Assembly: GCF_014203155.1 (NCBI RefSeq)
Contig: NZ_JACHIK010000004.1
Location: forward strand, 310,001 to 374,000
Length of the DNA stretch: 64,000 bases
From: Shinella fusca
GTDB taxonomy: Bacteria > Pseudomonadota > Alphaproteobacteria > Rhizobiales > Rhizobiaceae
Reading direction: 5' to 3'
Shown here: one piece after another, positions 22,950-48,502 of the stretch
How positions within the stretch are numbered: the first letter of the stretch is position 1
Layout of the letters: each line of letters opens with the position of its first letter
Made by a program: the position numbers and the translations under genes
The notes under the pieces: generated by a model
What the model saw: only the letters and a program-made list of their open reading frames with translations
Told to the model about the DNA's origin: nothing
Database searches by the model: none

Positions 22950-23338
22950 GCGGCCGGCCCATAGAGAAGATCGAGCGCGGCGAGCACGATGAGGAGATAG
23001 GTCCCGTTGCCGGAGGCATCCTCGTCCTCGGAAAGGTCGAAGCGCTTCCACGTATCCCGCCGGTCGCCGGCCTCGTATTCGCGGATCACCGCCTCGGCGA
23101 TATCGCGGATCTCGGCGAACCGGGAACGGTCGAAATGCAGCCCCTCGCCGTCGACGAAGAGGCCTTCGCCCTTCAGGAAGTCCGCCATCGGCATGGAGGT
23201 CTGCGACAGATAGAACAGGAGGTCGCCTGCCTCCATCGGCTGATCCACGGATTGCGGCACGAGGCCGGCGCGATCGACCAGCAGGCCGGCTTTCGCCTGC
23301 ATGTCCTGCGTCAGCCGCTTCGTCGTCACGAGGGTCAT
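22946..23338 (-). CDS. Conserved-looking protein of unknown function (130 aa)
   Basis: 130 residues, acidic and soluble, with no domain I recognise. It is held between DUF2945 and cls by ATGA overlaps on both sides, so it is certainly translated as part of the operon. The C-terminus is hydrophobic (TYLLIVLAALDLLYG) and may form a helix that packs against a partner or membrane. Confidence 0.75.
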   Translation of the reverse strand: MTLVTTKRLTQDMQAKAGLLVDRAGLVPQSVDQPMEAGDLLFYLSQTSMPMADFLKGEGLFVDGEGLHFDRSRFAEIRDIAEAVIREYEAGDRRDTWKRFDLSEDEDASGNGTYLLIVLAALDLLYGPAA

Positions 23339-23559
23339 GACGCATCTCCATCCAGAAGCGTGAGGGCGGCGCCCTTGTGGGCGGCGACATGGTCGGTCCT
23401 GTCGCTCCTGATCTCGTATTGCGGCACGTCGGGCGATGCGCGGTGGGTATGGCCCTTGTAGTCGAAATCGCTGGTATGGATGGCGATGATCGTGCCCGAT
23501 ACCCGGCCGGCTTCCGAATTCCAGGCGACATGGTCGCCGATGGCGAAACGCTTGCTCAT
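23335..23559 (-). CDS. DUF2945 (TUDOR-like) small protein
   Basis: 74-residue protein with the DUF2945 pattern: FAIGDHVAWNSEAGRVSGTI, then FDYKGHTHRASPDVPQYEI and HKGAALTLL. The family, also called hypervirulence-associated TUDOR domain, is a small beta-barrel of unknown role, common in stress islands. It overlaps both neighbours by four bases. Confidence 0.85.
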   Translation of the reverse strand: MSKRFAIGDHVAWNSEAGRVSGTIIAIHTSDFDYKGHTHRASPDVPQYEIRSDRTDHVAAHKGAALTLLDGDAS

Positions 23560-24860: not shown

Positions 24861-25661
24861 TTACTCCGCCGTAAGCGCGACCGCCGCTTCCGTCGTCAGC
24901 GTGCGGAAGGTGAAGCTCTCCTCGACGTAGAGATCGACGGTGGTGGCGGTGTGGCCGAGATAGCCGATGGAGAAGTCCTCGCCGACGGTCAGCTCGAAAT
25001 CGCCGCCGCGCAGCGACAGGACGAGCCCGCCCTCGATGGCCGGCGCCCAGATGACGCCGCCGTCGACGATCCGCTCGATATGGTGGAGGACGGGATAGCC
25101 GTCGTCGCTGCCGCCGCTCGCCGCCGTATAGGCCTCGGCGCCGAGGACCAGCGCATAGGGCCCTTCGACACCGGCAAGACGAAGCTGGCCGACCGCCCGC
25201 GCCACCGCGTCCGAATAGCGCTTCGCCCCGGGTGGCAACGGCATGGCCGGGTTGCTCGCCGCGGCGCGGATGCCCTCGATGCCGGCGGCCGCATAGCCGT
25301 CGAACACGGCCCGGTCCTCGGCGAAGGCGATCTTGCGCATGGCCTCCTTGACCGGCGACCAGTCGCTGTCGAGCGCACCGCGCTCCACGTCGTCGATGGC
25401 GCGGCGCGAAAGCTGGAAGGGCACGCGCACTTCGACGAGCGCCTTGACCTCGCGCGCCAGCGCCTGCACGCCCTCCTCGGGCGGCGCGATGGAAGCGACA
25501 TGGCCCGTGCCGACCGCCGAAAGGCCGGGACCGGACGGGCCGACCATGTCGACGACCCGGCGGGCGGCGAGGTGGCGCTTGAGCGTGCGCTTCGCCTCTT
25601 CCTCGATCTCCGCCCAGGCGGCCTCGGAAACGGGCGCGAGTTCACGGTGCAGGTTATTCAT
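24861..25661 (-). CDS. Encapsulin shell protein (family 1)
   Basis: 266-residue HK97-fold shell protein that self-assembles into a protein nanocompartment, the size expected of T=1 family 1 encapsulins. Family patterns include the N-terminal LHRELAPVSEAAWAEIEEEA helix that binds cargo peptides, VDMVGPSGPGLSAVGTG, the E-loop region with VPFQLSRRAIDDVERG, and the C-terminal LGHTATTVDLYVEESFTFR. Its ATG at 25661 overlaps the DyP stop by 8 bases, and the cargo gene is immediately upstream, the classic encapsulin arrangement. Confidence 0.95.
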   Translation of the reverse strand: MNNLHRELAPVSEAAWAEIEEEAKRTLKRHLAARRVVDMVGPSGPGLSAVGTGHVASIAPPEEGVQALAREVKALVEVRVPFQLSRRAIDDVERGALDSDWSPVKEAMRKIAFAEDRAVFDGYAAAGIEGIRAAASNPAMPLPPGAKRYSDAVARAVGQLRLAGVEGPYALVLGAEAYTAASGGSDDGYPVLHHIERIVDGGVIWAPAIEGGLVLSLRGGDFELTVGEDFSIGYLGHTATTVDLYVEESFTFRTLTTEAAVALTAE

Positions 25662-26718
25662 GGGAAGCCCCTTTCCTGAGCGAGCCTATGCCGAGCGATC
25701 CATCGCCGCGCGGCGCGGACGGTTGCGAAGGTTCCTCCGCCGCCAGCGGGGGCGCCGGCGCAGGTGCCGGAGCCGCATCCGGCGCGACCGCGTCGAGGAA
25801 CGAAGCGGAAGGAACGAAGAACAGCGACCCCGTGACGGCGCGGCTGAAATCGAGCAGCCGGTCGTAATTGCCGGGCGGCAGGCCGATGAACATGTTCTCC
25901 AGCATGCGCTCGATGCGATCCGGCGAGCGCGCATAGCCGATGAAATAGGTGCCGAACTCGCCCTTGCCGATATCGCCGAACGGCATGTTGTCGCGCAGGA
26001 TCTCCAGCGGCTCGCCGTTCTCCTCGATGGAGGTGAGGACGTTGTGGGCGTAGCTCGGCTTGGCGGCGTCGTCGAGCTCGATGTCGGAGAGCTTTTCGCG
26101 GCCGATGATCCGCTCCTGGTCGGCAACCGGCACGCGGTTCCAGGCGACGAGGTCGTGCAGGTACTTCTGCACGATCACATAGCTGCCGCCGGCAAAATCC
26201 GGGTCTTCCGCACCGATGATCGTGGCGGCGACGGCGGCCGCGTCGACGGGGTTTTCCGTGCCGTCGACGAAGCCGATCAGATCCCGGTCGTCGAAATAGC
26301 TGAAGCCGTGCACCTCGTCCTGGGTCGTAACGAAGCCCGAAAGCCGGCTCATGACCTGGCTTGCCAGCTCGAAGCAGAGGTCCATGCGCGTGGCGCGGAT
26401 GTGGAACAGGAGGTCGCCGGGCGTCGCGACCGCATGGTGGCGCCCACGGATCTCGCGGAAGGGGTGCAGGCCCTTGGGGCGCGGCGCGCCGAAGAGGCGC
26501 TCCCAGGCATCCGAACCGATGCCGAGCACGCAGGAAAGCCCGCCTTCAAGGTCGCGGAAGCCGACGGCGCGCAGCAGGCCGGAAAGATCGGCGCAGAGCT
26601 TGCGCACGGCCCTTTCGGCATCGTCGCCGGGCTCGAGCGTCACGACCAGGAAGATGGCGGCGCGGGTCAACCGCGCCGCGACCGGCTGCGGGACTACGGA
26701 GGGGAGGACTGCATCCAT
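25654..26718 (-). CDS. Dye-decolorizing peroxidase (DyP), encapsulin cargo
   Basis: Haem peroxidase of about 354 residues from ATG 26718 (an upstream TTG at 26736 is less likely). It carries the DyP signature GFVDGTENP with the catalytic Asp, a proximal His in PSYAHNVLTSI, and the distal Arg region FIGYARSPDRIERML. After the catalytic domain a Pro/Ala-rich linker leads to the C-terminal targeting peptide DGSLGIGSLRKG, which matches the known encapsulin-loading consensus (GSLGIGSLKR). It should be packed inside the shell encoded by the next gene. No secretion signal is seen. Physiological substrates of DyP cargo are not known for certain; oxidative-stress defence is the usual proposal. Confidence 0.95.
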   Translation of the reverse strand: MDAVLPSVVPQPVAARLTRAAIFLVVTLEPGDDAERAVRKLCADLSGLLRAVGFRDLEGGLSCVLGIGSDAWERLFGAPRPKGLHPFREIRGRHHAVATPGDLLFHIRATRMDLCFELASQVMSRLSGFVTTQDEVHGFSYFDDRDLIGFVDGTENPVDAAAVAATIIGAEDPDFAGGSYVIVQKYLHDLVAWNRVPVADQERIIGREKLSDIELDDAAKPSYAHNVLTSIEENGEPLEILRDNMPFGDIGKGEFGTYFIGYARSPDRIERMLENMFIGLPPGNYDRLLDFSRAVTGSLFFVPSASFLDAVAPDAAPAPAPAPPLAAEEPSQPSAPRGDGSLGIGSLRKGASHE

Positions 26719-26769
26719 GCGTGATCCATTCGGCAATAGCAGAAGAGACGAAACCGGCGGAAGGCCGGC

Positions 26770-27021: not shown

Positions 27022-27276
27022 TCAGAGGTCGACCGGACGACCCGATTTTTCCTCTTCCAGCGTCACGGCGATGTCGGCATTCGCCGAAAGGCGCACCTTG
27101 TCGCCCTCGACGCCCGCCACGAAGCCCATCTCGATATAGTGGTGATGGCCCTCGTGGTGGCCGAAGCTGTCGCTCTTCTTCAGCTTGATGCGGCCGTCCT
27201 CGACGCGGTCGACGGTTCCCACATGCACGCCGTCGGCGCCGATGACTTCCATGTTCCCGGTGATCTTGTGGCTCAT
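27022..27276 (-). CDS. DUF2171 domain protein
   Basis: 84 residues with the DUF2171 pattern: MEVIGADGVHVGTVDRVEDG, then IKLKKSDS, a His-rich loop GHHEGHHHYI, and VEGDKVRLSANA. The fold resembles a PRC-barrel; the His cluster could bind metal, but that is only a possibility. It follows clpB by 29 bp and is probably co-transcribed. Confidence 0.85.
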   Translation of the reverse strand: MSHKITGNMEVIGADGVHVGTVDRVEDGRIKLKKSDSFGHHEGHHHYIEMGFVAGVEGDKVRLSANADIAVTLEEEKSGRPVDL

Positions 27277-27305: not shown

Positions 27306-29915
<2,610 letters not shown>

Positions 29916-29952: not shown

Positions 29953-29968
29953 TGCAACCGCCGTGCCA
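29953..29968 (-). promoter_or_regulatory. Sigma-54 promoter of the clpB operon
   Basis: On the minus strand the sequence reads TGGCACGGCGGTTGCA, a perfect match to TGGCAC-N5-TTGCA. The predicted start point is about 12 bases further, leaving a leader of roughly 25 nt before the clpB ATG. It lies in the 150-bp gap between the sensor kinase stop and clpB. Confidence 0.85.
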
Positions 29969-30021
29969 ATCGCACCCCATCGGGAATCCGGCAGCTTTGC
30001 CGGCTCCCTCCGCCCGACCCG

Positions 30022-30059
30022 GGACAGATTGTCGGAAAGGCCGCGGACATTCTGTCCGC
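30022..30059. promoter_or_regulatory. Paired palindromic enhancer sites upstream of clpB
   Basis: Two GGACA-N3-TGTCC sites: GGACAGATTGTCG at 30022-30034 (one mismatch) and GGACATTCTGTCC at 30045-30057 (perfect, extending to 7-bp arms at 30043-30059). Centres are 23 bp apart, and 75 and 98 bp upstream of the end of the -12 element. This is the layout of tandem sites for an NtrC-class activator. Confidence 0.75.
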
Positions 30060-30065
30060 CGCCCG

Positions 30066-32087
30066 TCAGAAGGCGTCGTCGGAGGCCGGCAGCCAGAGCG
30101 TGAATGTCGTGCCCTCGCCCCGCTGGCTGCGCACCGCGATGCTGCCGCCGTGCTGGGCCATCAGCATCCGGCTGATCGACAGGCCGAGGCCGGTGCCCTC
30201 GCGGGCCTTCGTGGTGAAGAAGGGATCGAAGATGCGCGCCGCCACCTCGGCCGTCATGCCCTCGCCCGTGTCGCTGACCTCGATGGCGACGCCGCTGCCC
30301 GAATCGAAGGTGCGCAGGCCGAGGCGCCCGCCTTCCGGCATGGCGTGGATGGCATTGACGACGAGGTTGACGAGGACCTGCTGCAGCTCCGTCCGGTTCA
30401 TCTGGACGAAGCGCGTGGCGCGGTCCTCCCGCTCGACGGCGATCATCGTCTTGCGGAGAAGGTGCTGGACGAGCGGCAGCGTGTCGGCGATCACGCCGGC
30501 CGGGTCGTATTCCTCGGCAAGGCGCGCATATTCCTGCGGCTTGGCGAACTGGAGCAGCTTCGTGACGATCTCGGTGATGCGGTGCATCTGCTGGTCGATC
30601 AGGCGGAACTCCGTGCGCGCCTCCTCGGCCGCCGGCCCCATGAGGTCGCGGATGATCTCCAGATTGCCCTGCATGACGGCGATGGGATTGTTGATCTCGT
30701 GGGCGACGCCTGCGGTGATCTCGCCGATGGCGGCCAGCTTCTCCGACATGACGAGCTGGCGCGTCGTCGTCTCAAGGCGCTCGGCGGTATCGCGCAGCTC
30801 GAGCGTGCGCTGCTCGGCTTTTTCGCTCAGTTGCGCGTTCCACAGCCGCAACTCGGCGTCGCGCGCCTGGATGCCGTCGAGCAGCCGGTCGAGCTCCGAG
30901 GCGACGAGGCCGATCTCGTCGCGGTTCTCCACCGGCCCCGTCCGCGCGGCAAGATCGCCTCCATCGACCCGCGCGATGGTGCGCGTCATGCGTTCGAGCG
31001 GCTTGAAGATGCCGCGGGCCCAGCGCAGGAAGAGCGGCACCGTGGCCGCGACGGCGATGAGGAAGGCCGCGGCGATGGTCAGCCACGTCTCCTCCTTGGC
31101 TTCGAGGAATGGCGCTTCGAGGAAACCAGCATAGAGCATGCCGACCCGGCGCCCGCCGCTGTCAAGGATCGGTTCATAGGCCGAGACGTACCAGTCGTTG
31201 ACGACGAAGGCGCTGTCGAGCCAGGTCCGGCCCTCGTCCAGCACCGCGTTGCGCACCTCCTGCGAGACGCGCGTGCCGATGGCGCGGCGCTCGCCGAAGA
31301 GGCGCACATTCGTGCTGATGCGGATATCGTCGAGGAAGAGCGTCGTCGTGCCCTGCCGGCCTTCCGCCGATGCGGCGCCGTGAAAGATGAGGTCGTTGAT
31401 CGCATCGACGAAAGCAAGGTTGCGATTGAGCAGGATGCCGCCGACAAGCGCGCCGCGGCGCCCGCCGGGCAGGAGCAGCGGAGCGGCCGACTGGAGGACG
31501 AGGCCCCGCGTCTCGACCATGCCGTCCGGGGCGGCGTTGCCGGCGGTCGGCACGATGTCGATGCGCGCGCGCTCGGCAAGCTGCGGCGAGATAGCGGCAA
31601 GCTCCGAGCCGGCGAACACGTCGATGCCCGTCCGCGCCTGCCCGGCGAGCGCCGAGACGATCACCGGCCAGTCCCAGCGCGGCGCCCTGGCAAGGTCCTC
31701 GCGGCCGGACGTCACCACCGTCCCATCGTCGTCGACGACATAGAGGAAATCGAACCCGCCCTGCCGCCCCGTCGCATCGAGATAGAGGGGAAAGGTCTTG
31801 CGGGCATCCGCCCCCTGCCGCAGCAATTGCCGGAAGCGCTCGGATTCGCTGACGGCGACGAGCCTGCTTCCGGTGTTTTCCAAAATGCGGGAGAAATATT
31901 GCCGGGCAATCGTCAGGTCGTCGTTGACCTTGGCGATCGTCACCGCATCGAAACGGGCGTTCCAGCGATGGATGCCGATGGCAAGAAGAAGCGGCAGGAC
32001 GACGAGCATGGGCACGAGCGCGATCACCAGCAGCCGGTAGCGCACCGACCGTCGCAGGGTGCCCGCCTGTTCGCCCCCCTCAGCCAT
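30066..32087 (-). CDS. Membrane sensor histidine kinase with periplasmic Cache-like domain
   Basis: 673 residues. A first membrane helix (residues about 16-40) is followed by a large extracytoplasmic region (about 41-330) resembling a double-Cache sensor (FDFLYVVDDDGTVVTSG; WYVSAYEPILDSGGRRVGMLYAG), a second helix (about 335-355) and HAMP (about 356-405). After a coiled coil come HisKA with H463 (GVAHEINNP) and the HATPase (NAIHAMPEGG, DTGEGM, GTGLGLSI). It is the NtrB/DctB-like type that partners sigma-54 regulators. Its ATG at 32087 overlaps the regulator stop by 8 bp. The ligand is unknown; Cache domains usually bind small metabolites. Confidence 0.9.
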   Translation of the reverse strand: MAEGGEQAGTLRRSVRYRLLVIALVPMLVVLPLLLAIGIHRWNARFDAVTIAKVNDDLTIARQYFSRILENTGSRLVAVSESERFRQLLRQGADARKTFPLYLDATGRQGGFDFLYVVDDDGTVVTSGREDLARAPRWDWPVIVSALAGQARTGIDVFAGSELAAISPQLAERARIDIVPTAGNAAPDGMVETRGLVLQSAAPLLLPGGRRGALVGGILLNRNLAFVDAINDLIFHGAASAEGRQGTTTLFLDDIRISTNVRLFGERRAIGTRVSQEVRNAVLDEGRTWLDSAFVVNDWYVSAYEPILDSGGRRVGMLYAGFLEAPFLEAKEETWLTIAAAFLIAVAATVPLFLRWARGIFKPLERMTRTIARVDGGDLAARTGPVENRDEIGLVASELDRLLDGIQARDAELRLWNAQLSEKAEQRTLELRDTAERLETTTRQLVMSEKLAAIGEITAGVAHEINNPIAVMQGNLEIIRDLMGPAAEEARTEFRLIDQQMHRITEIVTKLLQFAKPQEYARLAEEYDPAGVIADTLPLVQHLLRKTMIAVEREDRATRFVQMNRTELQQVLVNLVVNAIHAMPEGGRLGLRTFDSGSGVAIEVSDTGEGMTAEVAARIFDPFFTTKAREGTGLGLSISRMLMAQHGGSIAVRSQRGEGTTFTLWLPASDDAF

Positions 32088-33465
32088 GCCAGTTCGCATA
32101 TTTGCGGTCGATCGTCTTGCGCGAGATGCCGAGGCGGCGCGCGGCCTCCTCCCGGTCGCCGCGCGTCTCGCGCAGCACCGCGAGGATGTGGCGCCGCTCC
32201 ACTTCCGCAAGACTTTCGCTGCGCGGCGCTTCCTCCTCCGGCGCCGTCCCCTCCATCCTCTCCGGGAAGGCGCCGAGGATGACGGTCCGCTCGATGAGGT
32301 TGCGCAACTCGCGGATATTGCCCGGCCAGTCGTAGCGCAGGAGAAACGCCTCCACCTTCAGATCGATGGCGACCGGCGGCATGCCGAGCTGGCGGGAAAT
32401 CTCCTCCATGAAGAGCCGGGCGAGTTCCAGCACGTCCTCGCCCCTTTCGCGAAGCGGCGGCAGGCGGATCTGCATCACGTTGATGCGGAAATAGAGGTCG
32501 GCCCGGAAGGTGCCCGCGTCCACCCGCCGGGCAAGATCGGCATTGGTGGCGAAGACGAAGCGCGCGTCGAACGGCACTTCCCGTTCCGAGCCGACAGGGC
32601 GCACCCGGCGGTCTTCGAGGACGCGCAGCAGCCTCGTCTGCAGAGGCGGCGGCAGTTCGCCCACCTCGTCGAGGAACACGGTCCCGCCCTCGGCATGCAT
32701 GAGCAGGCCTTCGCGGCTGCGCATGGCGCCCGTGAACGCGCCCTTCACATGCCCGAAAAGCTCGCTCTCGATCATGTCGGCAGGAATGGCGCCGCAGTTG
32801 ATCGGCACGAACAGCTTGTCCGCCCGGCCGGAAAGAAGATGCAGGGAGCGCGCCGCCACCTCCTTGCCGGTGCCCGACGGGCCGGTGAGGAGCACCGAGG
32901 TCGGCAGCGGCGCGACGCGGGCGAGGGCATCGCGGACCTGCTGGATGGTCTTCGACGAGCCGATCAGCCTGTCGCGCAGGAATATCTGGTGCGAGGGCGA
33001 GGTCAATTCGTGGCGCAGGACGTCGTTTTCCCGCTGCAGCCGCTTGCGGTCGAGGCAGCGGGCGATGGCGTTCAGGAGCTGGTTGGAGCGGAACGGCTTC
33101 AGGATGAAATCGACCACGCCGACCCGCAGCGCGTCGATCGCGGTATCGAGATCGGCATAGGCGGTCATCAGGATGACGTCGGCGAAGAAGCCGAGCGCCC
33201 GCTGCTCGGCCAGCCATTCGAGCCCGGTCTTGCCGGGCATGATATTGTCCATGATGACGACGTCGAAATTCTGCCCGTCCACCTTGCGCGAGGCCTCGGC
33301 GGCATTGCTTGCCACGTCGATCAGCCGGCACCGCGGCCGCAGCGTCTTGATCAGGAAGTTGCAGATGCCGGGCTCGTCGTCGACGACGAGGATCGCCGCC
33401 TGCGCGAGCCACGGCCCGAACTCCGCCTGCCCGGGCAATTCCGCCGCGCTCCGCCCCTCGACCAT
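32080..33465 (-). CDS. Sigma-54-dependent response regulator (NtrC class)
   Basis: 461 residues with three domains. The receiver (about 23-140) has acid pocket D29/D30, phospho-acceptor D73 (VIMDNIMPG) and K123. The AAA+ sigma-54 activation domain has Walker A GPSGTGKE (about 195-202), the sigma-54-contacting GAFTGA loop (about 242-247) and Walker B GGTVFLDE. The C-terminal Fis-type helix-turn-helix is REEAARRLGISRKTIDRKY. ATG 33465 has GAGGAGG. All elements needed for an activator are intact. It probably binds the GGACA-N3-TGTCC pairs found upstream of dnaK, clpB and the bestrophin gene, and so controls its own operon. Confidence 0.95.
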   Translation of the reverse strand: MVEGRSAAELPGQAEFGPWLAQAAILVVDDEPGICNFLIKTLRPRCRLIDVASNAAEASRKVDGQNFDVVIMDNIMPGKTGLEWLAEQRALGFFADVILMTAYADLDTAIDALRVGVVDFILKPFRSNQLLNAIARCLDRKRLQRENDVLRHELTSPSHQIFLRDRLIGSSKTIQQVRDALARVAPLPTSVLLTGPSGTGKEVAARSLHLLSGRADKLFVPINCGAIPADMIESELFGHVKGAFTGAMRSREGLLMHAEGGTVFLDEVGELPPPLQTRLLRVLEDRRVRPVGSEREVPFDARFVFATNADLARRVDAGTFRADLYFRINVMQIRLPPLRERGEDVLELARLFMEEISRQLGMPPVAIDLKVEAFLLRYDWPGNIRELRNLIERTVILGAFPERMEGTAPEEEAPRSESLAEVERRHILAVLRETRGDREEAARRLGISRKTIDRKYANWHG

Positions 33466-33494
33466 GCCGTCCTCCTCTGTTTGCCGCCTGCCGC

Positions 33495-33776
33495 TCAGGC
33501 CTGCGGGCCGCCCATATCGCGCCTGAGCTCTGCCATGGCGCGGCGCATGCCGTGGAGCTGGTCCATCAGGTGCAGGATCACGTCGATCCCCGCGTCATTC
33601 GCACCGATCCGCGACTGCAGCTCCCGGATCAGCCGGACCCGCGCCACATCGATCTCCTCGAAGAACACACCCGACGCCGTCTGCTGCGGCACAAGCCATT
33701 CCTGCTCGATCCACAGCTCCAGGACCTTCACCTGCAGGCCCGACGTCTTCAGGAACGTCTGCTTGTCCATCCTCAT
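33495..33776 (-). CDS. cbpM: CbpM-like chaperone modulator
   Basis: 93-residue MerR-like winged-helix protein of the CbpM family, which binds the J-domain of CbpA and tunes its co-chaperone activity. It has an N-terminal HTH-like part (TFLKTSGLQVKVLELWIEQEWL), then FFEEIDVARVRLIRELQ and a C-terminal helix. AAGGAGG precedes ATG 33776. It starts 2 bp after the cbpA stop, the standard cbpA-cbpM arrangement. It is 29 bp ahead of the response regulator. Confidence 0.85.
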   Translation of the reverse strand: MRMDKQTFLKTSGLQVKVLELWIEQEWLVPQQTASGVFFEEIDVARVRLIRELQSRIGANDAGIDVILHLMDQLHGMRRAMAELRRDMGGPQA

Positions 33777-33778
33777 CG

Positions 33779-34684
33779 TCAGCCCTCCTTGCGCGGGTCG
33801 AACGCCTTGCCCTTCGCCCAGCCCGAAACGAACGCCTCGAGCTCCGCATCCGGCGGGCTCGGCAGCACCACCTTCAGCTTCACGAACTGGTCGCCGGACC
33901 CGCCGCCGCGCTTCGGCGCGCCCTTGCCCTTCAGCCGCAGCACCGTGCCCGTGTTCGACCCCTTCGGCACCGCCATCGTCACCGCCCCCGTCGCCGTCGG
34001 AACGCGGATGCGACCGCCAAGCACCGCCTCGCTCAGCGAGACGGCAAGCTCGATCGTGATGTCGTCGCCCTCCCGTTCGAAGCGCGGGTCGGGCAGCACC
34101 TCCACCTCGATCAGCGCATCGCCCGGTCCCCCGGTTCCCGCGCCCGGTGCGCCCTTGCCCTTCAGCCGAAGCGTCTGGCCGCTGACGAGGCCCGGCGGGA
34201 TCTTCACGTCCAGCGTCCCGCCGTCCGGCAGCGTGATGCGCTTGCTCGCACCGGCGATCGATTCGGAAAAGTCGATCGCCAGCCGGTAGTGCAGGTCCTG
34301 ACCGCGCCGGTTGGCCTGCGCCCGCTGGCCGCGCCGCAGGAGATCGGCGAAGATGTCGTCGCTGTCCATGAAGTCGGAGAAGCCCGACGTATTGGCATAG
34401 GGATGGCCGGTATCGGCGCCGGCATAGTCGCGGTAGTAGTTCTGGCGCGGCGGCGGCCGCTCGGCGCCCGACGCGTCGATCTCGCCGGCGTCGAAGCGCC
34501 TGCGCTTGTCGGCATCGCCAAGAAGGTCGTAGGCGGCCGCCACCTCCTTGAACTTCTCCTCCGCCGACTTGTCGCCCGGATTGAGGTCGGGGTGCAGCTT
34601 CTTGGCAAGCTTGCGATAGGCACTCTGGATCTCGGCCGGCGAGGCGCTCGCCGAAACGCCAAGAACCTCATACGGATTGCTCAC
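33779..34684 (-). CDS. cbpA: DnaJ-type co-chaperone CbpA
   Basis: 301 residues. The J-domain with the HPD motif ([18 protein letters not shown]) covers residues 1-70, followed by a Gly/Phe-type linker ([19 protein letters not shown]) and two beta-sandwich C-terminal substrate-binding domains ([20 protein letters not shown]; a similar motif, [20 protein letters not shown], near the end). It lacks the Cys-rich zinc domain of DnaJ proper, so it is the CbpA class. The start is GTG 34684 with a GGAG site. It works with the DnaK encoded just upstream. Confidence 0.92.
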
Positions 34685-34715
34685 GGGTACGCTCCGGTTG
34701 GGGTGAAGCTGAACG

Positions 34716-34745
34716 ACTATAGGAGGCCGCAGGCGCTTCCGGCAA
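34716..34745 (-). promoter_or_regulatory. Possible sigma-70-type promoter for cbpA
   Basis: On the minus strand, TTGCCG (34745-34740) and TATAGT (34721-34716) are 18 bases apart in the 109-bp gap between dnaK and cbpA. It could give basal expression of cbpA, cbpM and the two-component genes independently of the sigma-54 promoter. Confidence 0.35.
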
Positions 34746-34793
34746 CGAGGCAGGCGCGCCCCGCCGCCGGATTTTTCTTCAGGACCTTACGCC

Positions 34794-36671
<1,878 letters not shown>

Positions 36672-36734
36672 CGCGAGTCCTCCTTGCTGCTGTTGATCAT
36701 CGATCGGCATGGGCCGACCCTTCACGTTCAGGCG

Positions 36735-36750
36735 AGCAACCCGCATGCCA
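36735..36750 (-). promoter_or_regulatory. Sigma-54 promoter of the dnaK operon
   Basis: On the minus strand it reads TGGCATGCGGGTTGCT, an exact match to TGGCAYR-N4-TTGCW. The predicted transcription start is about 50 bases before the dnaK ATG. Confidence 0.82.
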
Positions 36751-36803
36751 GGTGGCAGGTTCCGGGTTTCCAGCCATTTGGCAACCGCGGCGGCTTAAAG
36801 GAC

Positions 36804-36838
36804 GGACAAGTTGTCCGGGCGGGCCGGACAATCTGTCA
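36804..36838. promoter_or_regulatory. Paired palindromic enhancer sites upstream of dnaK
   Basis: GGACAAGTTGTCC (36804-36816, perfect, with a further flanking pair) and GGACAATCTGTCA (36826-36838, one mismatch). Centres are 22 bp apart, and 75 and 97 bp upstream of the end of the -12 element. The distal site includes the stop codon of the DUF2474 gene. Confidence 0.75.
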
Positions 36839-36952
36839 GGCCCTCAGCCAGAACCGCAGGATCGCGGCGACGACGCCGAGCGCGACAACGCTCATCGCCC
36901 AGATGGCGACCATCCAGCCGAACTGCTTCAGTCGGCGCATCGCGGCCGGCAT
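36836..36952 (-). CDS. DUF2474 single-helix protein of the bd oxidase operon
   Basis: 38-residue membrane protein MPAAMRRLKQFGWMVAIW... with one helix (about residues 12-34) and a positively charged N-terminus. The DUF2474 family follows cydB of cyanide-insensitive oxidases, the position where CydX is found in other operons, so an accessory-subunit role is likely. Its ATG shares one base with the cydB stop (TGATG), proving coupling. Confidence 0.8.
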   Translation of the reverse strand: MPAAMRRLKQFGWMVAIWAMSVVALGVVAAILRFWLRA

Positions 36953-37956
36953 CAGTGATATCCGTGCGTGCCGACCTTGCCGCGGAACACCCAGTAGGCC
37001 CAGGCGGTATAGGCAAGGATCAGCGGGATGATGACGATCGCGCCGGCAAGCAGGAAGCTGAGGCTTTCTTCCGGCGCGGCGGCGTCGCGGATCGTCACCG
37101 CGGGCGGCACGATATAAGGATAGAGGCTGACGCCGAGGCCGACGAAGCCGAGCAGGAAGAGCCCGAGCGCCATCAGGAAGGGCAGACGCTCGTGGCCGCG
37201 CCTGAGGCTCCAGAAGAGCGTCACCGCACAGACGACGACGAGCAGCGGCACCTGCGCGGTCAGGAGCACGCCGGGCATCTCGAACCAGCGGCGCCAGTAT
37301 TCATAGGCAAGGTAGGGCGTCGCGGCGCTGACGGCGGCGAGCGCCACGAGCGTGGCGAGGGCGAGGCGGAAGGCCATCGCCTGCGCGTGGCGCAGGCTCG
37401 AGCCCTCCGTCTTCCAGATCAGCCAGGTCGCGCCGAGCAGCGCATAGCCCACGACGACGGCGATGCCCGTCAGCAGGCTGAACGGGCTCAGCCAGTCGAG
37501 CCAGCCGCCGGCATAGGCGTTGTTCTCGACGGTGATGCCTTGCAGGATCGCGCCCAGCGTCATGCCCTGCGCAAGGGCCGCGACGACCGAGCCGACGGTG
37601 AAGGCGACGTCCCAGAAGGCGCGGTGGCCCGGATCGCGCCAGCGGAACTCGAAGGCGACGCCGCGGAAGATGAGCCCGAGCAGCATGGCGATCATCAGCG
37701 GATAGGTCGCCGGCAGGATGATGGCGTAGGCGAGCGGGAAGGCGGCGAGCAGCCCGCCGCCGCCCATGACGAGCCAGGTCTCGTTGCCGTCCCAGACCGG
37801 GGCGATGGAATTCATCGCCTGGTCGCGCTCCTCGCCGACCTTGAAGGTCGGGAAGAGGATGCCGATGCCGAGGTCGAAGCCGTCCATGACCACATAGGCC
37901 ATGACGGCGAAACCGATGATCGCCGCCCAGACGAGGGTCAGGTCGAAGCCCATCAT
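36952..37956 (-). CDS. cydB: Cytochrome bd-type quinol oxidase subunit II
   Basis: 334 residues, polytopic (about eight to nine helices). The family start MGFDLTLVWAAIIGFAVMAYVVMDGFDLGIGIL is seen in the first helix, with PVWDGNETWLVMGGGGLLAAFP following. The start is ATG 37956 (a second Met follows); GAAGGAG overlaps the end of cydA. It forms the bd-type terminal oxidase with CydA. The operon layout and short CydA Q-loop point to the CIO (cyanide-insensitive) branch. Confidence 0.94.
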   Translation of the reverse strand: MMGFDLTLVWAAIIGFAVMAYVVMDGFDLGIGILFPTFKVGEERDQAMNSIAPVWDGNETWLVMGGGGLLAAFPLAYAIILPATYPLMIAMLLGLIFRGVAFEFRWRDPGHRAFWDVAFTVGSVVAALAQGMTLGAILQGITVENNAYAGGWLDWLSPFSLLTGIAVVVGYALLGATWLIWKTEGSSLRHAQAMAFRLALATLVALAAVSAATPYLAYEYWRRWFEMPGVLLTAQVPLLVVVCAVTLFWSLRRGHERLPFLMALGLFLLGFVGLGVSLYPYIVPPAVTIRDAAAPEESLSFLLAGAIVIIPLILAYTAWAYWVFRGKVGTHGYH

Positions 37957-37960
37957 GACG

Positions 37961-39373
37961 CTACTCCTTCGTGGCAAAGGGGGCGGTAACCCCGGAGGCC
38001 GGCGTGATGCCCGCCGCGCGCTGCGGCAGGTGCGGCGGCTCGCTCTCGCCGCGCTCCGGCGGCCGGGCCATCAGCCGCGCGAGGTAGTAGGTGCCGGCGC
38101 CGAAGGCGACGAAGTAGACGACGACGAAGGCGAGGAGCGAGGCGGCGACGGCGGGCGCGGCGAGCGGCGAGACGGAATCGGCCGTCCGCAACAGGCCATA
38201 GACCGTATAGGGCTGCCGCCCCACTTCCGTCGTCACCCAGCCGGCGATGACGGCGACGAAGCCGGACGGGCCCATGACGACGGCGGCCCGGTGCAGCCAC
38301 GGCCATTCGTAAAGCCGCCGCCGGTAGCGGGCGAAAAGGCTCCACAGGCCGATGCCGAGCATGGCGAAGCCGAGCGCCACCATGATGCGGAACGACCAGA
38401 AGACGATATGGACGGGCGGCCACTCCTCCCGCGGAAAATCGGTGAGGCCCGGCAGCGGCGCGAAGGGATCGTGCTTGAGGATGAGCGAGCCGAGATGCGG
38501 CAGCGACAGCTCGTAGCGCACCTCGGCGGCCTCGCTGTCCGGCAGGCCGAAGAGGATGAGGGGCGCACCGTCGGGGCTCGGATGATAGTCGCCCTCCATG
38601 GCGAGCACCTTGACCGGCTGGTGCTCCAGCGTGTTGAGGCCGTGCGCATCGCCGGCGAGGATCTGGACCGGCGCGACGAGCGCCGCCATCCACATCGCCA
38701 TGGAGAACATCTTGCGCGCACCGGGATTGGCACGGTCCTTCAGGAGGTGCCAGGCGCCGACCGCACCGACCGCGAACGCGGTCGTCAGGTAGGCGGCGAT
38801 GACGGTATGGACAAGGCGATAGGGAAAGCTCGCGGTGAAGATGATGTCGGCCCAGGACCCGCCCGGCACGAACTGGCCGGCCGCGTTGATCGCATAGCCG
38901 GCCGGCGTCTGCATCCAGCTGTTGACCGCGATGATCCAGGTCGCCGAGATCAGCGTGCCGAGCGCCACCATCGAGGTCGCGAAGAAGTGCAGCCCCTTGC
39001 CGACCTTGTTCATGCCGAACAGCATGACGCCGAGGAAGCCCGCCTCGAGGAAGAAGGCCGTCAGCACCTCGTAGGCCATCAGCGGCCCGACCACCGGCCC
39101 GGCCTTCTCGGAGAAGACCGACCAGTTGGTGCCGAACTGGTAGGACATGACGACGCCGGAGACGACGCCCATGCCGAACACCACGGCGAAGATCTTCAGC
39201 CAGTAGCGGTAGAGATTGGCGTAGACGCCCTGCCCGGTCTTCAGCCAGAGGCCCTCCAGCACGAACAGGTAGCTGGCAAGGCCGATGGAAAAGGCCGGGA
39301 AGATGAAGTGGAAGGAGATGGTGAACGCGAACTGCGCGCGCGCCAGCACCACGGGATCGAGGCCTGCAAACAC
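37961..39373 (-). CDS. cydA: Cytochrome bd-type quinol oxidase subunit I (CIO type)
   Basis: 470-residue haem-bearing subunit that oxidises quinol and reduces oxygen. The N-terminal FAGLDPVVLARAQFAFTISF contains the haem-ligand His region of the first helix that follows, and the family motif GWVTTEVGRQPYTVYGLLRT lies near residue 390. The Q-loop between the middle helices is short, as in CIO enzymes. The start is GTG 39373 with AAGGAGTAAGGA upstream. It follows the FdhF/YdeP gene by 27 bp, so they probably form one operon. The product would pair with NDH-2 encoded nearby in an uncoupled respiratory chain. Confidence 0.94.
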   Translation of the reverse strand: MFAGLDPVVLARAQFAFTISFHFIFPAFSIGLASYLFVLEGLWLKTGQGVYANLYRYWLKIFAVVFGMGVVSGVVMSYQFGTNWSVFSEKAGPVVGPLMAYEVLTAFFLEAGFLGVMLFGMNKVGKGLHFFATSMVALGTLISATWIIAVNSWMQTPAGYAINAAGQFVPGGSWADIIFTASFPYRLVHTVIAAYLTTAFAVGAVGAWHLLKDRANPGARKMFSMAMWMAALVAPVQILAGDAHGLNTLEHQPVKVLAMEGDYHPSPDGAPLILFGLPDSEAAEVRYELSLPHLGSLILKHDPFAPLPGLTDFPREEWPPVHIVFWSFRIMVALGFAMLGIGLWSLFARYRRRLYEWPWLHRAAVVMGPSGFVAVIAGWVTTEVGRQPYTVYGLLRTADSVSPLAAPAVAASLLAFVVVYFVAFGAGTYYLARLMARPPERGESEPPHLPQRAAGITPASGVTAPFATKE

Positions 39374-39400
39374 TGTCCTTACTCCTTGCTCACGGCCGGA

Positions 39401-41668
39401 TCACCCGGCGACGACGCGCACCGGGATGGATTTGGCTGCCGGCGTGCCGCTGAGCCTGTCGTAGTAATCAAGCGGCAGGAGGGGATTGAGTTCCGGATAA
39501 TATCCCGCGACCGCCCCGCGCGGCATCGGATAATCGAGCACCGTCAGGCCGTCGACACGCCGCGCCAGCCCGTCCGTGCTGATCGTCTCGAGCGCGACGC
39601 GCGTGCCGGAGGCGAGCCCCCGCGCTGCGATATCCTCCGCGTTCATGAACAGTACCATGCGGTCGTTGTAGACGCCACGGTAGCGGTCGTTGTTGCTGTA
39701 GATCGTCGTGTTGAACTGGTCGTGCGAGCGCACGGTGGCAAGGCGCAGCATGGCCGGGTCGTCGACCACGTCGTTGACCTCCAGTCCCGGCATGGAGAGG
39801 AAATTCGCCTTGCCGTTCGCCGTCGGCCAGACGCGCCGGCGCGGCGGGATGTCGAGATGGAAGCCCTTCGGGTTTTTGACCCGTTCGGAAAAGCCGGCAT
39901 AGATTTCCGGGTAGACCTCGGCGATCTTGTCGCGGATGAGGTCGTAGTCCTCGATGTAGCGCGCCCATTCCACCTTGCTGTCGGGCAGCGCGGCCATCGC
40001 CATGCGGCAGACGATCTCCACCTCCGGCTTCACATCGGGGCTTGCCGGCGTCAGCACGCCGCGCGAGGGCGTGACGTTCGACATCGCGTCCTCGATGGTG
40101 ACGAACTGCTCGCCTGCCGCCGTGCGGATCCATTCCGAACGGGCGACGACCGGCAGGATCAGCGCCTCGCGCCCGTGCACGAGATGGCCGCGGTTGAGCT
40201 TGGTGGCGATGCCGACCGTCAGATCCAGCCGGCGCATCGCCTCGTAGGAGCGGTCGGTATCGGGGATGGCGCGCACGAAATTGCCGCCGAGGCCGATGAA
40301 GACCTTCGCCGTGCCGTTCTCCATCGCCTCGACGGATTCCACCGTGTGGTGGCCGTATTCGCGCGGCGGCTCGAAGCCGAAGACGTCGCGCACCCGGTCG
40401 AGATAGTCCTGCGCCGGCCGCTCGTCGATGCCGACCGTGCGGTCGCCCTGCACGTTGGAATGGCCGCGGATGGGCGCGATGCCGGCGCCCGGCTTGCCGA
40501 AATTGCCGCGCAGGAGCAGGAGGTTCGCCACCTGCTGCAACAGGCGCGAGCCCTGCTGGTGCTGGGTGAGCCCCATGCCGTAGCAGATGATGGTGGCGCG
40601 CGAGCGGATGTAGATTTCCGCACAGCGGCGGATCTGCGCCTCGTCGAGCCCCGAGACCCGCACGATCTCGGCCCAGTCCTGCGAGAGGGCGTCGGCGCGG
40701 ATCGCCTCCACCCCGACGGTGTGCTCGGCGATGAAATCCGCATCGAGCACCTTTTCGCCGGCCGCCTCGCGCTCGAACATGACCTTCATCATGCCCTTGA
40801 TGAGGGCAAGGTCGCCGCCGATCTTGATATGCACGAACTCGCTGGCGATCCGGGTGGAGCCGAAGGTCGCCATCTGGACGACGTCCTGCGGCTCGGTGAA
40901 GCGGATCAGCGCCCGCTCCGGCATGGGATTGACCGCGACGATCGGCGCGCCGCGTTTGCGCGCCTCGACGAGATTGGTCATCATGCGCGGCGAGTTGGTG
41001 CCGGTGTTCTGGCCGATGACGAAGATCGCCTCGGCATGCTCGAAATCCTCCAGCACCACCGTGCCCTTGCCGATGCCGATCACCGGCGGCAGGCCGCGGC
41101 TCGTCGGCTCGTGGCACATGTTCGAGCAGTCGGGGAAATTGTTGGTGCCGAACTCGCGCACGAAGATCGAATAGAGGAAGGCCGCCTCGTTGGGCGTGCG
41201 GCCGGAAGTGTAGAACTCGGCCTCGTGCGGACTGGAAAGCCCCCGCAGATGCCGGCCGATCGTCGCGAAGGCCTCGTCCCAGCCGCACGGCACATACTTG
41301 TCGCTCGCCGCGTCGTAGCGCATCGGCTCGGTCAGCCGGCCCTGCATCTCCAGCCAGTAGTCCGACTGCTCCATCAGCTCGGCGACGGTGTATTTCGCGA
41401 AGAACTCCGGCGTGACGCGGAACTTCGTCGCCTCATGGGCGAGCGCCTTGGCGCCGTTCTCGCAGAATTCCAGCGTCTTCTTGCAATCGGCATCGGGAAA
41501 GGCGCAGCTCGGGCACTTGAAGCCGCCCGGCCGGTTCATCGCCAGAAGCGCGCGCGAGCCCTTGGTGATGACGCTCTGCTCCATCAGCACCTTCGCCGTC
41601 GCGGCCGCGGCGCCCCAGCCGCCGGCGGGATGATTGTAGGTCTTGTATTGCGGCTTGCCATCGGCCAT
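39401..41668 (-). CDS. FdhF/YdeP-family molybdopterin oxidoreductase
   Basis: 755-residue bis-MGD enzyme of the FdhF/YdeP family. Cysteines at 52, 55, 62 and 69 (KCPSCAFPDADC...C) resemble the family's N-terminal Fe-S motif. The likely Mo ligand is Cys in NFPDCSNMCHEPTS. MGD-binding stretches include VIGQNTGTNSPRM and NVQGDRTVGI. No signal peptide is seen, so it is cytoplasmic. In E. coli YdeP is linked to acid resistance; the reaction is unknown. ATG 41668 has only a weak ribosome site. It heads the operon with cydAB. Confidence 0.9.
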   Translation of the reverse strand: MADGKPQYKTYNHPAGGWGAAAATAKVLMEQSVITKGSRALLAMNRPGGFKCPSCAFPDADCKKTLEFCENGAKALAHEATKFRVTPEFFAKYTVAELMEQSDYWLEMQGRLTEPMRYDAASDKYVPCGWDEAFATIGRHLRGLSSPHEAEFYTSGRTPNEAAFLYSIFVREFGTNNFPDCSNMCHEPTSRGLPPVIGIGKGTVVLEDFEHAEAIFVIGQNTGTNSPRMMTNLVEARKRGAPIVAVNPMPERALIRFTEPQDVVQMATFGSTRIASEFVHIKIGGDLALIKGMMKVMFEREAAGEKVLDADFIAEHTVGVEAIRADALSQDWAEIVRVSGLDEAQIRRCAEIYIRSRATIICYGMGLTQHQQGSRLLQQVANLLLLRGNFGKPGAGIAPIRGHSNVQGDRTVGIDERPAQDYLDRVRDVFGFEPPREYGHHTVESVEAMENGTAKVFIGLGGNFVRAIPDTDRSYEAMRRLDLTVGIATKLNRGHLVHGREALILPVVARSEWIRTAAGEQFVTIEDAMSNVTPSRGVLTPASPDVKPEVEIVCRMAMAALPDSKVEWARYIEDYDLIRDKIAEVYPEIYAGFSERVKNPKGFHLDIPPRRRVWPTANGKANFLSMPGLEVNDVVDDPAMLRLATVRSHDQFNTTIYSNNDRYRGVYNDRMVLFMNAEDIAARGLASGTRVALETISTDGLARRVDGLTVLDYPMPRGAVAGYYPELNPLLPLDYYDRLSGTPAAKSIPVRVVAG

Positions 41669-41729
41669 GATCGAGCGCTCCGAAAGGTGACAGGCCTCAA
41701 TTACATCACTTTATCCTATTGAAATCCAT

Positions 41730-41765
41730 GGACGATTTGTCTCAGTCCCGATGGACAAATTGTCC
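41730..41765. promoter_or_regulatory. Paired palindromic enhancer sites between YdeP and bestrophin genes
   Basis: GGACAAATTGTCC (41753-41765, perfect; arms extend to 9 bp over 41750-41768) and GGACGATTTGTCT (41730-41742, two mismatches). Centres are 23 bp apart, and 73 and 96 bp from the end of the -12 element of the sigma-54 promoter on the right. The sites lie in the divergent spacer, so they might also affect the YdeP-cyd operon, although I see no -24/-12 element pointing left. Confidence 0.72.
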
Positions 41766-41816
41766 ATCGTCCCCATGCGGCAACCCGCAAGGCCTTGAAA
41801 AGCCTGCCTGCCCGGC

Positions 41817-41832
41817 TGGCACGCATCCTGCA
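41817..41832 (+). promoter_or_regulatory. Sigma-54 promoter of the bestrophin gene
   Basis: TGGCACGCATCCTGCA matches TGGCAC-N5-TTGCA with one change (C for the first T of the -12 block). The predicted start is about 45 bases before ATG 41889. Confidence 0.65.
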
Positions 41833-41888: not shown

Positions 41889-42785
41889 ATGATCCTGCGT
41901 TCCAAGCCGAGCTTCAAAGATATCGTCTCCACCTTCAACGGCTCGATCCTGCCGCGGATCGCCTGGCATCTGCTGGCGATGACGGTGCTCAGCGTCGTCG
42001 CGATCTTCGCCGCACGGGAGCATCCGGGGATTTTCGCCAAGATCAGCGCCATCCCTTTCACGCTGACGGGTATCGCGCTCTCGGTCTTCATGAGCTTCCG
42101 CAACAATGCCTGCTACACGCGCTGGTGGGAGGGACGCGTGCTGTGGGGCGAACTGATCATCGCCTGCCGCTCCTTCGCCCGCCAGACCGCGGCGCTGAAC
42201 GAGGACGATCGCCGGTTCCTCCTCCACAATCTCTGCGCCTTCTCGGCGGGCCTCGTCGCACGGCTGCGGGGCGAGGACGAACTGGAGGCGATCCGCCGCT
42301 GGTCGGCGGACGGGATCGACCCGCACAATCCCAACCCGACCAATGCGGTGCTGGACAGGATCGGCGGGCACTGTCTTGCGCTGATGCGGGCACACCGGAT
42401 CAGCGAGATCCACTATTCGGTGCTGGAGATCCAGCTTTCGGCCCTCGCCAGGGTGCAGGGCGGCTGCGAGCGCATCGCGCTGACGCCGGTGCCCTTCGCC
42501 TATTCCCTGCTGCTCCACCGCACGGCGCTCGTCTTCTGCGTGACGCTGCCCTTCGCGCTCGCCGGCTCGCTCGACTGGTGGACGCTGCTGCCGGTGCTGC
42601 TCGTCGCCTATACGTTCTTCGGCCTCGAAGCGCTCGGTCACCAGTTGGAGGAGCCCTTCGGCTTCGAGCCGAACGCACTTCCCCTCAGCGCCATGCTGCG
42701 CACCGTGGAGCGCGACATGCTCTCCCTCCTCGGCGAGGCGGACCTGCCCGCCCCGATCGAGCCGCAAGACAATGTGCTGAGGTGA
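41889..42785 (+). CDS. Bestrophin-family (UPF0187) membrane protein
   Basis: 298-residue predicted anion channel of the bestrophin family. Family signatures include SILPRIAWHLLAMTVLSV, the channel-neck region FTLTGIALSVFMSFRNNACYTRWWEGR, and the C-terminal EALGHQLEEPFGFEPNALPL (each seen in order). About four helices are predicted. Bacterial homologues form pentameric channels, some cation-selective. It is preceded by a sigma-54 promoter and enhancer pair. The ribosome site is weak. The next gene is 98 bp away on the same strand. Confidence 0.9.
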   Translation: MILRSKPSFKDIVSTFNGSILPRIAWHLLAMTVLSVVAIFAAREHPGIFAKISAIPFTLTGIALSVFMSFRNNACYTRWWEGRVLWGELIIACRSFARQTAALNEDDRRFLLHNLCAFSAGLVARLRGEDELEAIRRWSADGIDPHNPNPTNAVLDRIGGHCLALMRAHRISEIHYSVLEIQLSALARVQGGCERIALTPVPFAYSLLLHRTALVFCVTLPFALAGSLDWWTLLPVLLVAYTFFGLEALGHQLEEPFGFEPNALPLSAMLRTVERDMLSLLGEADLPAPIEPQDNVLR

Positions 42786-44992: not shown

Positions 44993-45001
44993 GATCGCTC
45001 C

Positions 45002-46324: not shown

Positions 46325-46348
46325 GGGCCAGCCCCCGCGACGGCATTG

Positions 46349-48298: not shown

Positions 48299-48358
48299 GG
48301 AACCCTCCCACAGTCGCCGGACCAAGCCGCACCGGTCGGCGGCCTCTATGAAGTATAC

Positions 48359-48384
48359 TACGAAAGAGGCAGGGATTTTGTTCC
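48359..48384 (-). promoter_or_regulatory. Candidate EcfG-type promoter for prkA
   Basis: On the minus strand GGAAC (48384-48380) and CGTA (48362-48359) are 17 bases apart, one change from GGAAC-N16/17-CGTT. The predicted leader is about 55 nt. This fits with general-stress control of the prkA cluster, but is short and could be chance. Confidence 0.35.
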
Positions 48385-48502
48385 CATCATCGTGAAAGAA
48401 ATCAAATTCATGTGCGCACATACCCTGATCATGGATTCGGCGACCGCCGCCTATATTCTCGACCATATAACGACGGACCGGCGCTGACGGAGCCTCCTCT
48501 TG

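What the first reader, a model, noticed from the sequence alone, without database searches (positions are those of the whole stretch)
29953..41832. A compact two-component/sigma-54 regulon linking DnaK, ClpB and a bestrophin through paired GGACA-N3-TGTCC sites
Three separate promoters carry the -24/-12 pattern: TGGCACGGCGGTTGCA (clpB), TGGCATGCGGGTTGCT (dnaK) and TGGCACGCATCCTGCA (bestrophin). Each has two copies of the palindrome GGACA-N3-TGTCC upstream. Centre-to-centre spacings within a pair are 23, 22 and 23 bp. Distances from the proximal centre to the end of the -12 element are 75, 75 and 73 bp; the distal ones are 98, 97 and 96 bp. Such fixed geometry at three places within 12 kb is very unlikely by chance. 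An NtrC-class activator with an intact GAFTGA loop and a Cache-domain kinase are encoded between two of the promoters, and would be autoregulated. Heat-shock chaperones under sigma-54 and a dedicated two-component system, instead of sigma-32 or HrcA, are unusual, and I know of no described system with this composition.
Basis: partly seen in the sequence, partly recalled or inferred. Interest (0 to 1): 0.88.

Follow-up and report, generated by a model that had tools for sequence, protein, structure and literature searches.

The report
Sigma-54 stress island with spare chaperones
A soil-type bacterium carries an extra set of protein-repair chaperones on a gene island switched by its own two-component sensor, which looks built to sense formate; the same switch and its paired DNA sites recur in relatives, where it usually runs a transporter instead.

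Summary
Three promoters (clpB, dnaK, bestrophin) each have two GGACA-N3-TGTCC-type sites, 22-23 bp apart, at a fixed distance from a -24/-12 element. The pair pattern searched occurs nowhere else in the 4.85 Mb genome; no site-site-promoter combination arose in 300 shuffles of the window. The strict combination occurs in 10 of 397 genomes of the order, all among the 42 with an orthologue of the adjacent NtrC-type regulator, none among the 355 without.

The chaperones are spare copies: a separate dnaK-dnaJ and a second clpB exist. Outside the islands, 35 of 37 such promoters precede an OFA-family transporter, often near formate dehydrogenase genes. Island-type regulators group together in alpha- and gamma-proteobacteria; their islands variously hold bd oxidase, YdeP, encapsulin/DyP, HSP20, SOD and formate dehydrogenase. 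The sensor matches a formate-bound Cache structure, and three residues reported for formate binding are invariant in 90 of 90 kinases. I infer a formate- or weak-acid-responsive proteostasis island. Regulator binding and formate sensing are untested.

The parts
27306..29915 (-). clpB, extra copy (869 aa)
   Evidence: TIGR03346 1384 bits, cut-off 1232; second clpB elsewhere at 71% identity
29953..29968 (-). sigma-54 -24/-12 element TGGCACGGCGGTTGCA of clpB
   Evidence: geometry
30022..30034 (-). proximal regulator site CGACAATCTGTCC (clpB)
30045..30057 (-). distal regulator site GGACAGAATGTCC (clpB)
30066..32087 (-). sensor histidine kinase, 673 aa: Cache sensor, HAMP, HisKA, HATPase
   Evidence: Pfam sCache_3_3, HAMP, HisKA, HATPase_c; R256/T259/T272 invariant in 90 of 90 homologues
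32080..33465 (-). NtrC-type response regulator, 461 aa: receiver, AAA+ with GAFTGA, Fis-type HTH
   Evidence: GAFTGA and Asp73
33495..33776 (-). CbpM-like MerR_2 protein
   Evidence: Pfam MerR_2; name given by its position behind cbpA
33779..34684 (-). CbpA-type DnaJ co-chaperone
   Evidence: DnaJ and DnaJ_C, no zinc-finger domain listed; below the cut-off of the NCBIfam cbpA model (167.8 of 403 bits)
34794..36671 (-). dnaK, extra copy (625 aa)
   Evidence: TIGR02350 above cut-off; second dnaK at 78%
36735..36750 (-). sigma-54 -24/-12 element TGGCATGCGGGTTGCT of dnaK
36804..36816 (-). proximal regulator site GGACAACTTGTCC (dnaK)
36826..36838 (-). distal regulator site TGACAGATTGTCC (dnaK)
36952..37953 (-). 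cydB, bd oxidase subunit II; neighbour, no paired promoter of its own seen
37961..39373 (-). cydA, bd oxidase subunit I; neighbour
39401..41668 (-). FdhF/YdeP-family molybdoenzyme; neighbour
   Evidence: TIGR01701 905 bits, cut-off 582
41730..41742 (+). distal regulator site GGACGATTTGTCT (bestrophin), weakest of six
41753..41765 (+). proximal regulator site GGACAAATTGTCC (bestrophin)
41817..41832 (+). sigma-54 -24/-12 element TGGCACGCATCCTGCA of bestrophin
41889..42785 (+). bestrophin-type channel
   Evidence: Pfam Bestrophin_2
27022..27276 (-). DUF2171 protein behind clpB
25654..26736 (-). DyP-type peroxidase next to encapsulin
24861..25661 (-). family 1 encapsulin shell
   Evidence: in B. 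uaiense a paired promoter stands before small protein-DyP-encapsulin
23556..24839 (-). NDH-2-like NADH dehydrogenase; probable island member
   Evidence: related islands

Best explanation
This is an accessory stress island run by one dedicated two-component system. A membrane kinase with a Cache sensor phosphorylates an NtrC-type activator. The activator binds two GGACA-N3-TGTCC palindromes about 74 and 97 bp upstream of -24/-12 promoters, IHF bends the DNA at most promoters of the family, and sigma-54 polymerase is activated. In this genome the targets are dnaK-cbpA-cbpM-RR-HK (hence positive autoregulation), clpB with the genes behind it, and bestrophin. Shown computationally: sites, geometry, their rarity in the genome, co-distribution with the regulator, conservation, and that the chaperones are extra copies. 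Inferred: that the regulator itself binds the sites, that IHF acts, that transcription follows, and that the signal is formate (about 0.65). The proposed physiology is resistance to formic or weak-acid stress: chaperones and ClpB repair protein, bd oxidase and NDH-2 offer a bypass respiratory chain, formate dehydrogenases and OFA transporters in relatives handle the acid, and channels move anions. The chaperone regulon was probably recruited from an older OFA/formate-dehydrogenase circuit and then spread horizontally.
For: Pair pattern only at these three places in the own genome; combination 0 in 300 shuffles. Strict pattern in 10 of 397 order genomes, all within the 42 with RR; 0 of 355 without; reversed control 0 (Fisher 6e-11, by genus 3.5e-5). 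Phylum sample: 9 of 398, all within the 20 with RR. 93 promoters from 110 loci: 92 have the proximal site at 72-76 bp and 91 a spacing of 21-23; IHF consensus with at most 1 mismatch in 72 of 93, against 84 of 1860 shuffles. Non-island promoters: 35 of 37 in front of OFA; island promoters: dnaK 9, bestrophin 6, clpB 5 and others of 56. RR tree: 16 island-type rows form one group with one OFA-type row at its base, SH-aLRT 99. Sensor: profile hits 8py1 and 8py0, PDB title of 8py1 'in complex with formate'; R/T/T spacing as PacF R142/T145/T158 (PMC12501870, passages), invariant in 90 of 90; an sCache_3_3 domain with the reported formate residues binds formate (PMC12415202, passages). Sensor identity 37-68% across types, close to the kinase core. 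Molybdoenzymes near the regulator in 43 of 80 loci; 7 of these 43 plus L176 tested: formate dehydrogenase alpha is the top family in 8 of 8, above cut-off in 5. NAD-formate dehydrogenase in two island loci (L166; L046).
Against: No binding, expression or ligand data. The window's own clpB and dnaK promoters have poor IHF matches (4 and 3 mismatches; bestrophin 1). The looser pair pattern also occurs in 8 of 90 family genomes without a close regulator, in one as a repeated element. Of 29 loci with 56-61% regulators only 1 has the full promoter layout (40 of 51 at 62% or more), though several show single sites near promoter-like words. 45 columns of the sensor alignment are invariant, so invariance of three residues is not specific by itself. 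In the model the formate-type module is the C-terminal of two, while PacF uses its membrane-distal module. 36 structures rank above 8py1 in the fold search, among them amino-acid and dicarboxylate sensors. OFA scores nearest an L-lactate transporter model, below its cut-off, so the transported acid is uncertain. 3 of the 16 island-type rows (L046, L050, L098) show no dnaK, cbpA or clpB in the stretch held (two are short contigs). No sigma-54 promoter was found for ydeP-cydAB in the window.
Confidence: 0.8

Rival explanations
1. The two-component regulon is real but the sensor sees something else: lactate or another small carboxylate, external acid, or low oxygen.
For: OFA transporter scores nearest an L-lactate transporter model. 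Island genes (HdeD-like, YdeP, bd oxidase) fit acid or low-oxygen stress. Best structural matches are amino-acid and dicarboxylate sensors.
Against: Formate-bound 8py1 is the best sequence-profile hit and its residue triad is invariant; formate dehydrogenase genes lie near many family members.
Confidence: 0.33
2. The chaperone genes are mainly read from ordinary promoters, and the sigma-54 promoters are minor or decayed.
For: IHF site poor at two of three window promoters and one weak regulator site.
Against: Promoters of dnaK (9) and clpB (5) in the islands, window included, keep the geometry; -24/-12 elements in the window are exact.
Confidence: 0.12
3. The paired sites belong to another regulator, and the neighbouring kinase and regulator are incidental.
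For: No binding data; the distant orthologues mostly lack the pair.
Against: In the two samples the strict pattern is not found without the regulator (0 of 355 and 0 of 378 genomes), and in the order sample every place lies within 10 kb of it.
Confidence: 0.04
4. Chance arrangement of palindromes and promoter-like words.
For: Single palindromes are only mildly enriched in the window, and three promoter-like words arise in 4 of 100 shuffles.
Confidence: 0.005

Closest known systems
NtrC-class two-component/sigma-54 systems (NtrC, ZraSR, AtoSC, DctBD)
   Same: Receiver-AAA+-Fis regulator with GAFTGA, paired upstream sites, IHF-like site in the family, -24/-12 promoters
   Different: Below the cut-off of all 25 NCBIfam models shown of 106 hit (NtrC, AtoC, ZraR and others); targets are Hsp70/Hsp100 chaperones and stress genes
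HsfA-HsfB of Myxococcus xanthus activating lonD (recalled, not read here)
   Same: NtrC-type two-component control of a heat-shock gene
   Different: As recalled, a single protease gene and another sensor
Formate-specific Cache sensors: PacF, Atu0526, 8py0/8py1 chemoreceptors
   Same: Homologous sensor module with R-x2-T-x12-T
   Different: Those are chemoreceptors; here the module is in a histidine kinase, with a second Cache-like module
Low-oxygen-activated (lxa) locus of Burkholderia cenocepacia (PMC6127331, passages)
   Same: Clustered stress genes including a heat-shock protein, raised together
   Different: Discussed in that paper with a FixK/FixLJ-type oxygen regulation and universal stress proteins; no NtrC-type regulator in the passages seen
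TLQC/LHR heat-resistance islands with ClpG/ClpK (recalled)
   Same: Extra protein-quality-control genes on an island
   Different: The window disaggregase is ClpB, far below the ClpG/ClpK cut-offs (802 and 788 of 1900 bits)

Membership tests
NtrC-class sigma-54 response regulators | Receiver, AAA+ with GAFTGA, Fis-type HTH, phospho-acceptor Asp | tested here: met
NtrC-class sigma-54 response regulators | Upstream sites at a fixed place before -24/-12 promoters | tested here: met
   sequence arrangement and conservation:
NtrC-class sigma-54 response regulators | Regulator binds the sites and activates transcription | not testable with these tools
   needs footprinting and transcript data
NtrC-class sigma-54 response regulators | IHF site between sites and promoter (common, not universal) | tested here: inconclusive
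   72 of 93 family promoters; in the window 1 of 3
Named equivalogs NtrC, AtoC, ZraR | Score above curated cut-off | tested here: not met
   360.1/558.6, 349.6/714, 324.4/760 bits
Formate-sensing Cache domains | Sequence and fold similarity to formate-bound domains | tested here: met
   E 7.8e-5; Foldseek E 1.7e-5, rank 37
Formate-sensing Cache domains | Arg and two Thr reported for formate binding (PacF R142, T145, T158) | tested here: met
   R256, T259, T272 in 90 of 90 kinases, same residues in 8py1 and 8py0; PacF residues from a PMC12501870 passage, spacing matched by me, PacF sequence not aligned
Formate-sensing Cache domains | Binds formate | not testable with these tools
   needs calorimetry or thermal shift
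Housekeeping heat-shock regulon (sigma-32/HrcA) | Island genes are the genome's only dnaK and clpB | tested here: not met
   second dnaK with dnaJ and second clpB
TLQC/LHR islands | ClpG or ClpK disaggregase | tested here: not met
lxa-type low-oxygen locus | Universal stress proteins in the cluster | not tested
   USP family not searched for

The most novel reading that the evidence does not exclude
A horizontally spread 'proteostasis and bypass-respiration' island in which a formate-sensing kinase and a sigma-54 activator drive a spare Hsp70/Hsp100 system, rewired from an older transporter/formate-dehydrogenase circuit by multiplying one fixed promoter design (nine promoters in the Bradyrhizobium uaiense island). 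Extracellular formate would act as the alarm for damage such as formic-acid or formaldehyde stress.
Probability: 0.45. Interest if true: 0.85.

Novelty: new variant of a known kind. Interest (0 to 1): 0.72.

Why it matters
Chaperone control in bacteria is usually described through sigma-32, HrcA or HspR. Here an extra DnaK-CbpA-ClpB set, with an encapsulin peroxidase and bd oxidase nearby, appears wired to a small-molecule sensor through sigma-54. It gives a clear case of a regulon growing by copying one promoter layout while the sensor stays conserved, and a testable ligand (formate). The motif is specific enough to predict the regulon in other genomes.

Tried and rejected
A sigma-54 promoter for ydeP-cydAB on the minus strand of 41668-41760: I read the printed sequence and saw none, and one search lists none, so these genes are given as neighbours, not targets. 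Signs of recent transfer in the window: GC is 0.65-0.69 across 18-44 kb, no GC anomaly, and ARAGORN found no tRNA. A TTGAW-plus-promoter scan of distant clades printed nothing; relaxing it showed single GGACAN3TGTCC-type sites near promoter-like words in Thalassospira, Marivibrio, Methylopila and Methylobacterium loci. The VIA-align library was not available. Atu0526 R115A still binds formate, more tightly than wild type, though chemotaxis is lost (PMC8698456, passages), so the arginine alone is not decisive for binding.

Rows left out or weak: L042 (42% regulator) was on the list but fell below my score limit; 93 regulators and 90 kinases came from 94 loci (L042, L104, L111, L113 gave no kinase). 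4 of 56 island promoters have no identified first gene; the two overlapping L170 hits (4808, 4815) probably count one promoter twice. Target names rest on proteins that I picked beside promoters and identified (the L175 'HSP20c' has no family hit). Gene calls are crude (GC-position heuristic). Island type was set by gene neighbourhood; 13 of the 16 island-type rows show dnaK, cbpA or clpB in the stretch held.

Literature: 10 searches of an open-access library. Searches returned no paper. The listings (1 paper; 2; 7; 10 of 611 shown; 20 of 204 shown) had no title or abstract that describes this regulon. Subscription papers were not covered. The PNAS 2025 paper on formate Cache domains is not held; I know it by recall and through papers citing it.
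Full report
What is in the sequence. The window lies in a 4.85 Mb genome of a Rhizobiaceae-group bacterium (placed by two relatives of the same family whose contig lengths and places equal those of Nitratireductor aquimarinus and Pseudohoeflea suaedae). On the minus strand, dnaK, a CbpA-type co-chaperone, a CbpM-like MerR_2 protein, an NtrC-type regulator and a Cache-domain kinase form a likely operon, followed by clpB, DUF2171, a small protein, DyP peroxidase, encapsulin and an NDH-2-like gene. cydAB and a YdeP-family molybdoenzyme lie upstream of dnaK, then a divergent bestrophin gene.

Is it more than chance? The pair pattern occurs in the whole genome only at these three places; the same pattern read backwards occurs nowhere. 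In 300 dinucleotide shuffles of the window no site-site-promoter combination arose, against three observed.

Whose sites are they? I searched 397 genomes of the order. The strict pattern was in 10 and the regulator (E up to 1e-130) in 42; all 10 are among the 42, and 0 of the other 355 have the pattern. Six of the ten are one genus; counted by genus it is 5 of 20 against 0 of 122, p about 3.5e-5. In a phylum sample 9 of 398 genomes have the pattern, all among the 20 with the regulator (eight of these nine were also in the order sample). A looser pair pattern in 101 family genomes hit 16: 8 of 11 genomes with a close regulator and 8 of 90 without one, so the loose pattern alone is not specific.

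The family. 41 of 80 have at least one promoter of the full layout: 40 of 51 with regulators of 62% identity or more, and 1 of 29 with 56-61%; some of the rest show single sites near promoter-like words. Pooling 110 loci gave 93 promoters after removal of identical stretches, with the proximal site at 72-76 bp in 92, spacing 21-23 in 91, and an IHF consensus with at most one mismatch in 72, 68 of them at -29 to -32 from the -24 element; shuffles reached one mismatch in 84 of 1860. In the window only the bestrophin promoter has a good IHF match.

What it controls. Outside the islands, 35 of 37 promoters stand before an OFA-family transporter (name from the NCBI annotation of plasmid relatives). 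In island loci, 56 promoters stand before dnaK (9), bestrophin (6), clpB (5), HdeD-like DUF308 (4), a small protein followed by DyP-encapsulin or other genes (4), MoeA, SOD, HSP20, CsbD, DUF1269, NAD-formate dehydrogenase, YdeP, FdhD, NDH-2 and others, 4 unidentified (families). A whole-genome scan of 18 genomes with one site plus promoter matched in 15, mostly in one island per genome with a few places elsewhere, reversed control 0.

Origin. In a quick maximum-likelihood tree of 93 regulators, the 16 island-type rows group together with one OFA-type row at the base (SH-aLRT 99), inside OFA-type rows. The group holds Rhizobiaceae, Nitrobacteraceae, Sphingomonadaceae and Lysobacteraceae, and island-type Bradyrhizobium regulators lie with other island-type rows, not with OFA-type Bradyrhizobium. 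This suggests horizontal spread and recruitment from an OFA circuit; the root is a midpoint, so direction is inference. The one other genome of the same genus in the sample lacks the regulator at the limit used.

Spare copies. The genome has a second dnaK (78%), followed by a full dnaJ, and a second clpB (71%); the 10 and 9 kb stretches around them have no paired promoter.

The signal. The sensor is conserved across types (37-68% identity to the window). Its profile hits two solved chemoreceptor domains, and the PDB title of one, 8py1, reads 'in complex with formate'. R256, T259 and T272 have the spacing of PacF R142, T145 and T158, which affect formate binding (PMC12501870, passages), and are invariant in 90 of 90 kinases. 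Another paper reports formate binding by an sCache_3_3 domain with the reported residues (PMC12415202, passages); Atu0526 is a further formate Cache receptor (PMC8698456, passages). Molybdoenzymes distantly like YdeP lie in 43 of 80 loci; of 7 of these and one more (L176), all 8 have formate dehydrogenase alpha as top family, 5 above its cut-off, and a plasmid relative sits behind an annotated FDH3 operon. The predicted sensor has two modules (mean pLDDT 84.8), with the triad in the C-terminal one, unlike PacF as reported. I put formate at about 0.65; it was 0.6.

Verdict. No description of it turned up in ten searches of an open-access library, two of which showed only part of their hits.

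Noticed in passing
window 24861-26736 (-): Encapsulin with DyP peroxidase behind clpB; in Bradyrhizobium uaiense (L171, promoter at 15025) a small protein, DyP and encapsulin follow their own paired-site sigma-54 promoter.
   Followed up: partly
L164 1022-3613: In a Rhizobium rhizogenes genome a paired-site promoter precedes a second two-component system (dCache kinase plus LuxR-type response regulator), suggesting a cascade.
   Followed up: partly
   Followed up: partly
G081 contig ends (L012, L019, L020): A repeated stretch, in three places at a contig end, carries a GACAN3TGTC pair in a genome without a close regulator.
   Followed up: no
window 43451-48466 (-): SpoVR, DUF444 and PrkA genes in a row next to the island; no paired promoter found there.
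   Followed up: no
window 22946-23531 (-): The PLD-like ORF at 21513-23531 probably starts near 22940; a short gene at 22946-23338 looks by eye like a small unknown protein that heads a promoter in L047/L048.
   Followed up: partly
L182 (Pseudosulfitobacter plasmid): Distant member of the regulator family directly behind a formate dehydrogenase FDH3 operon; 47 plasmid records of that genus hold a match.
   Followed up: partly
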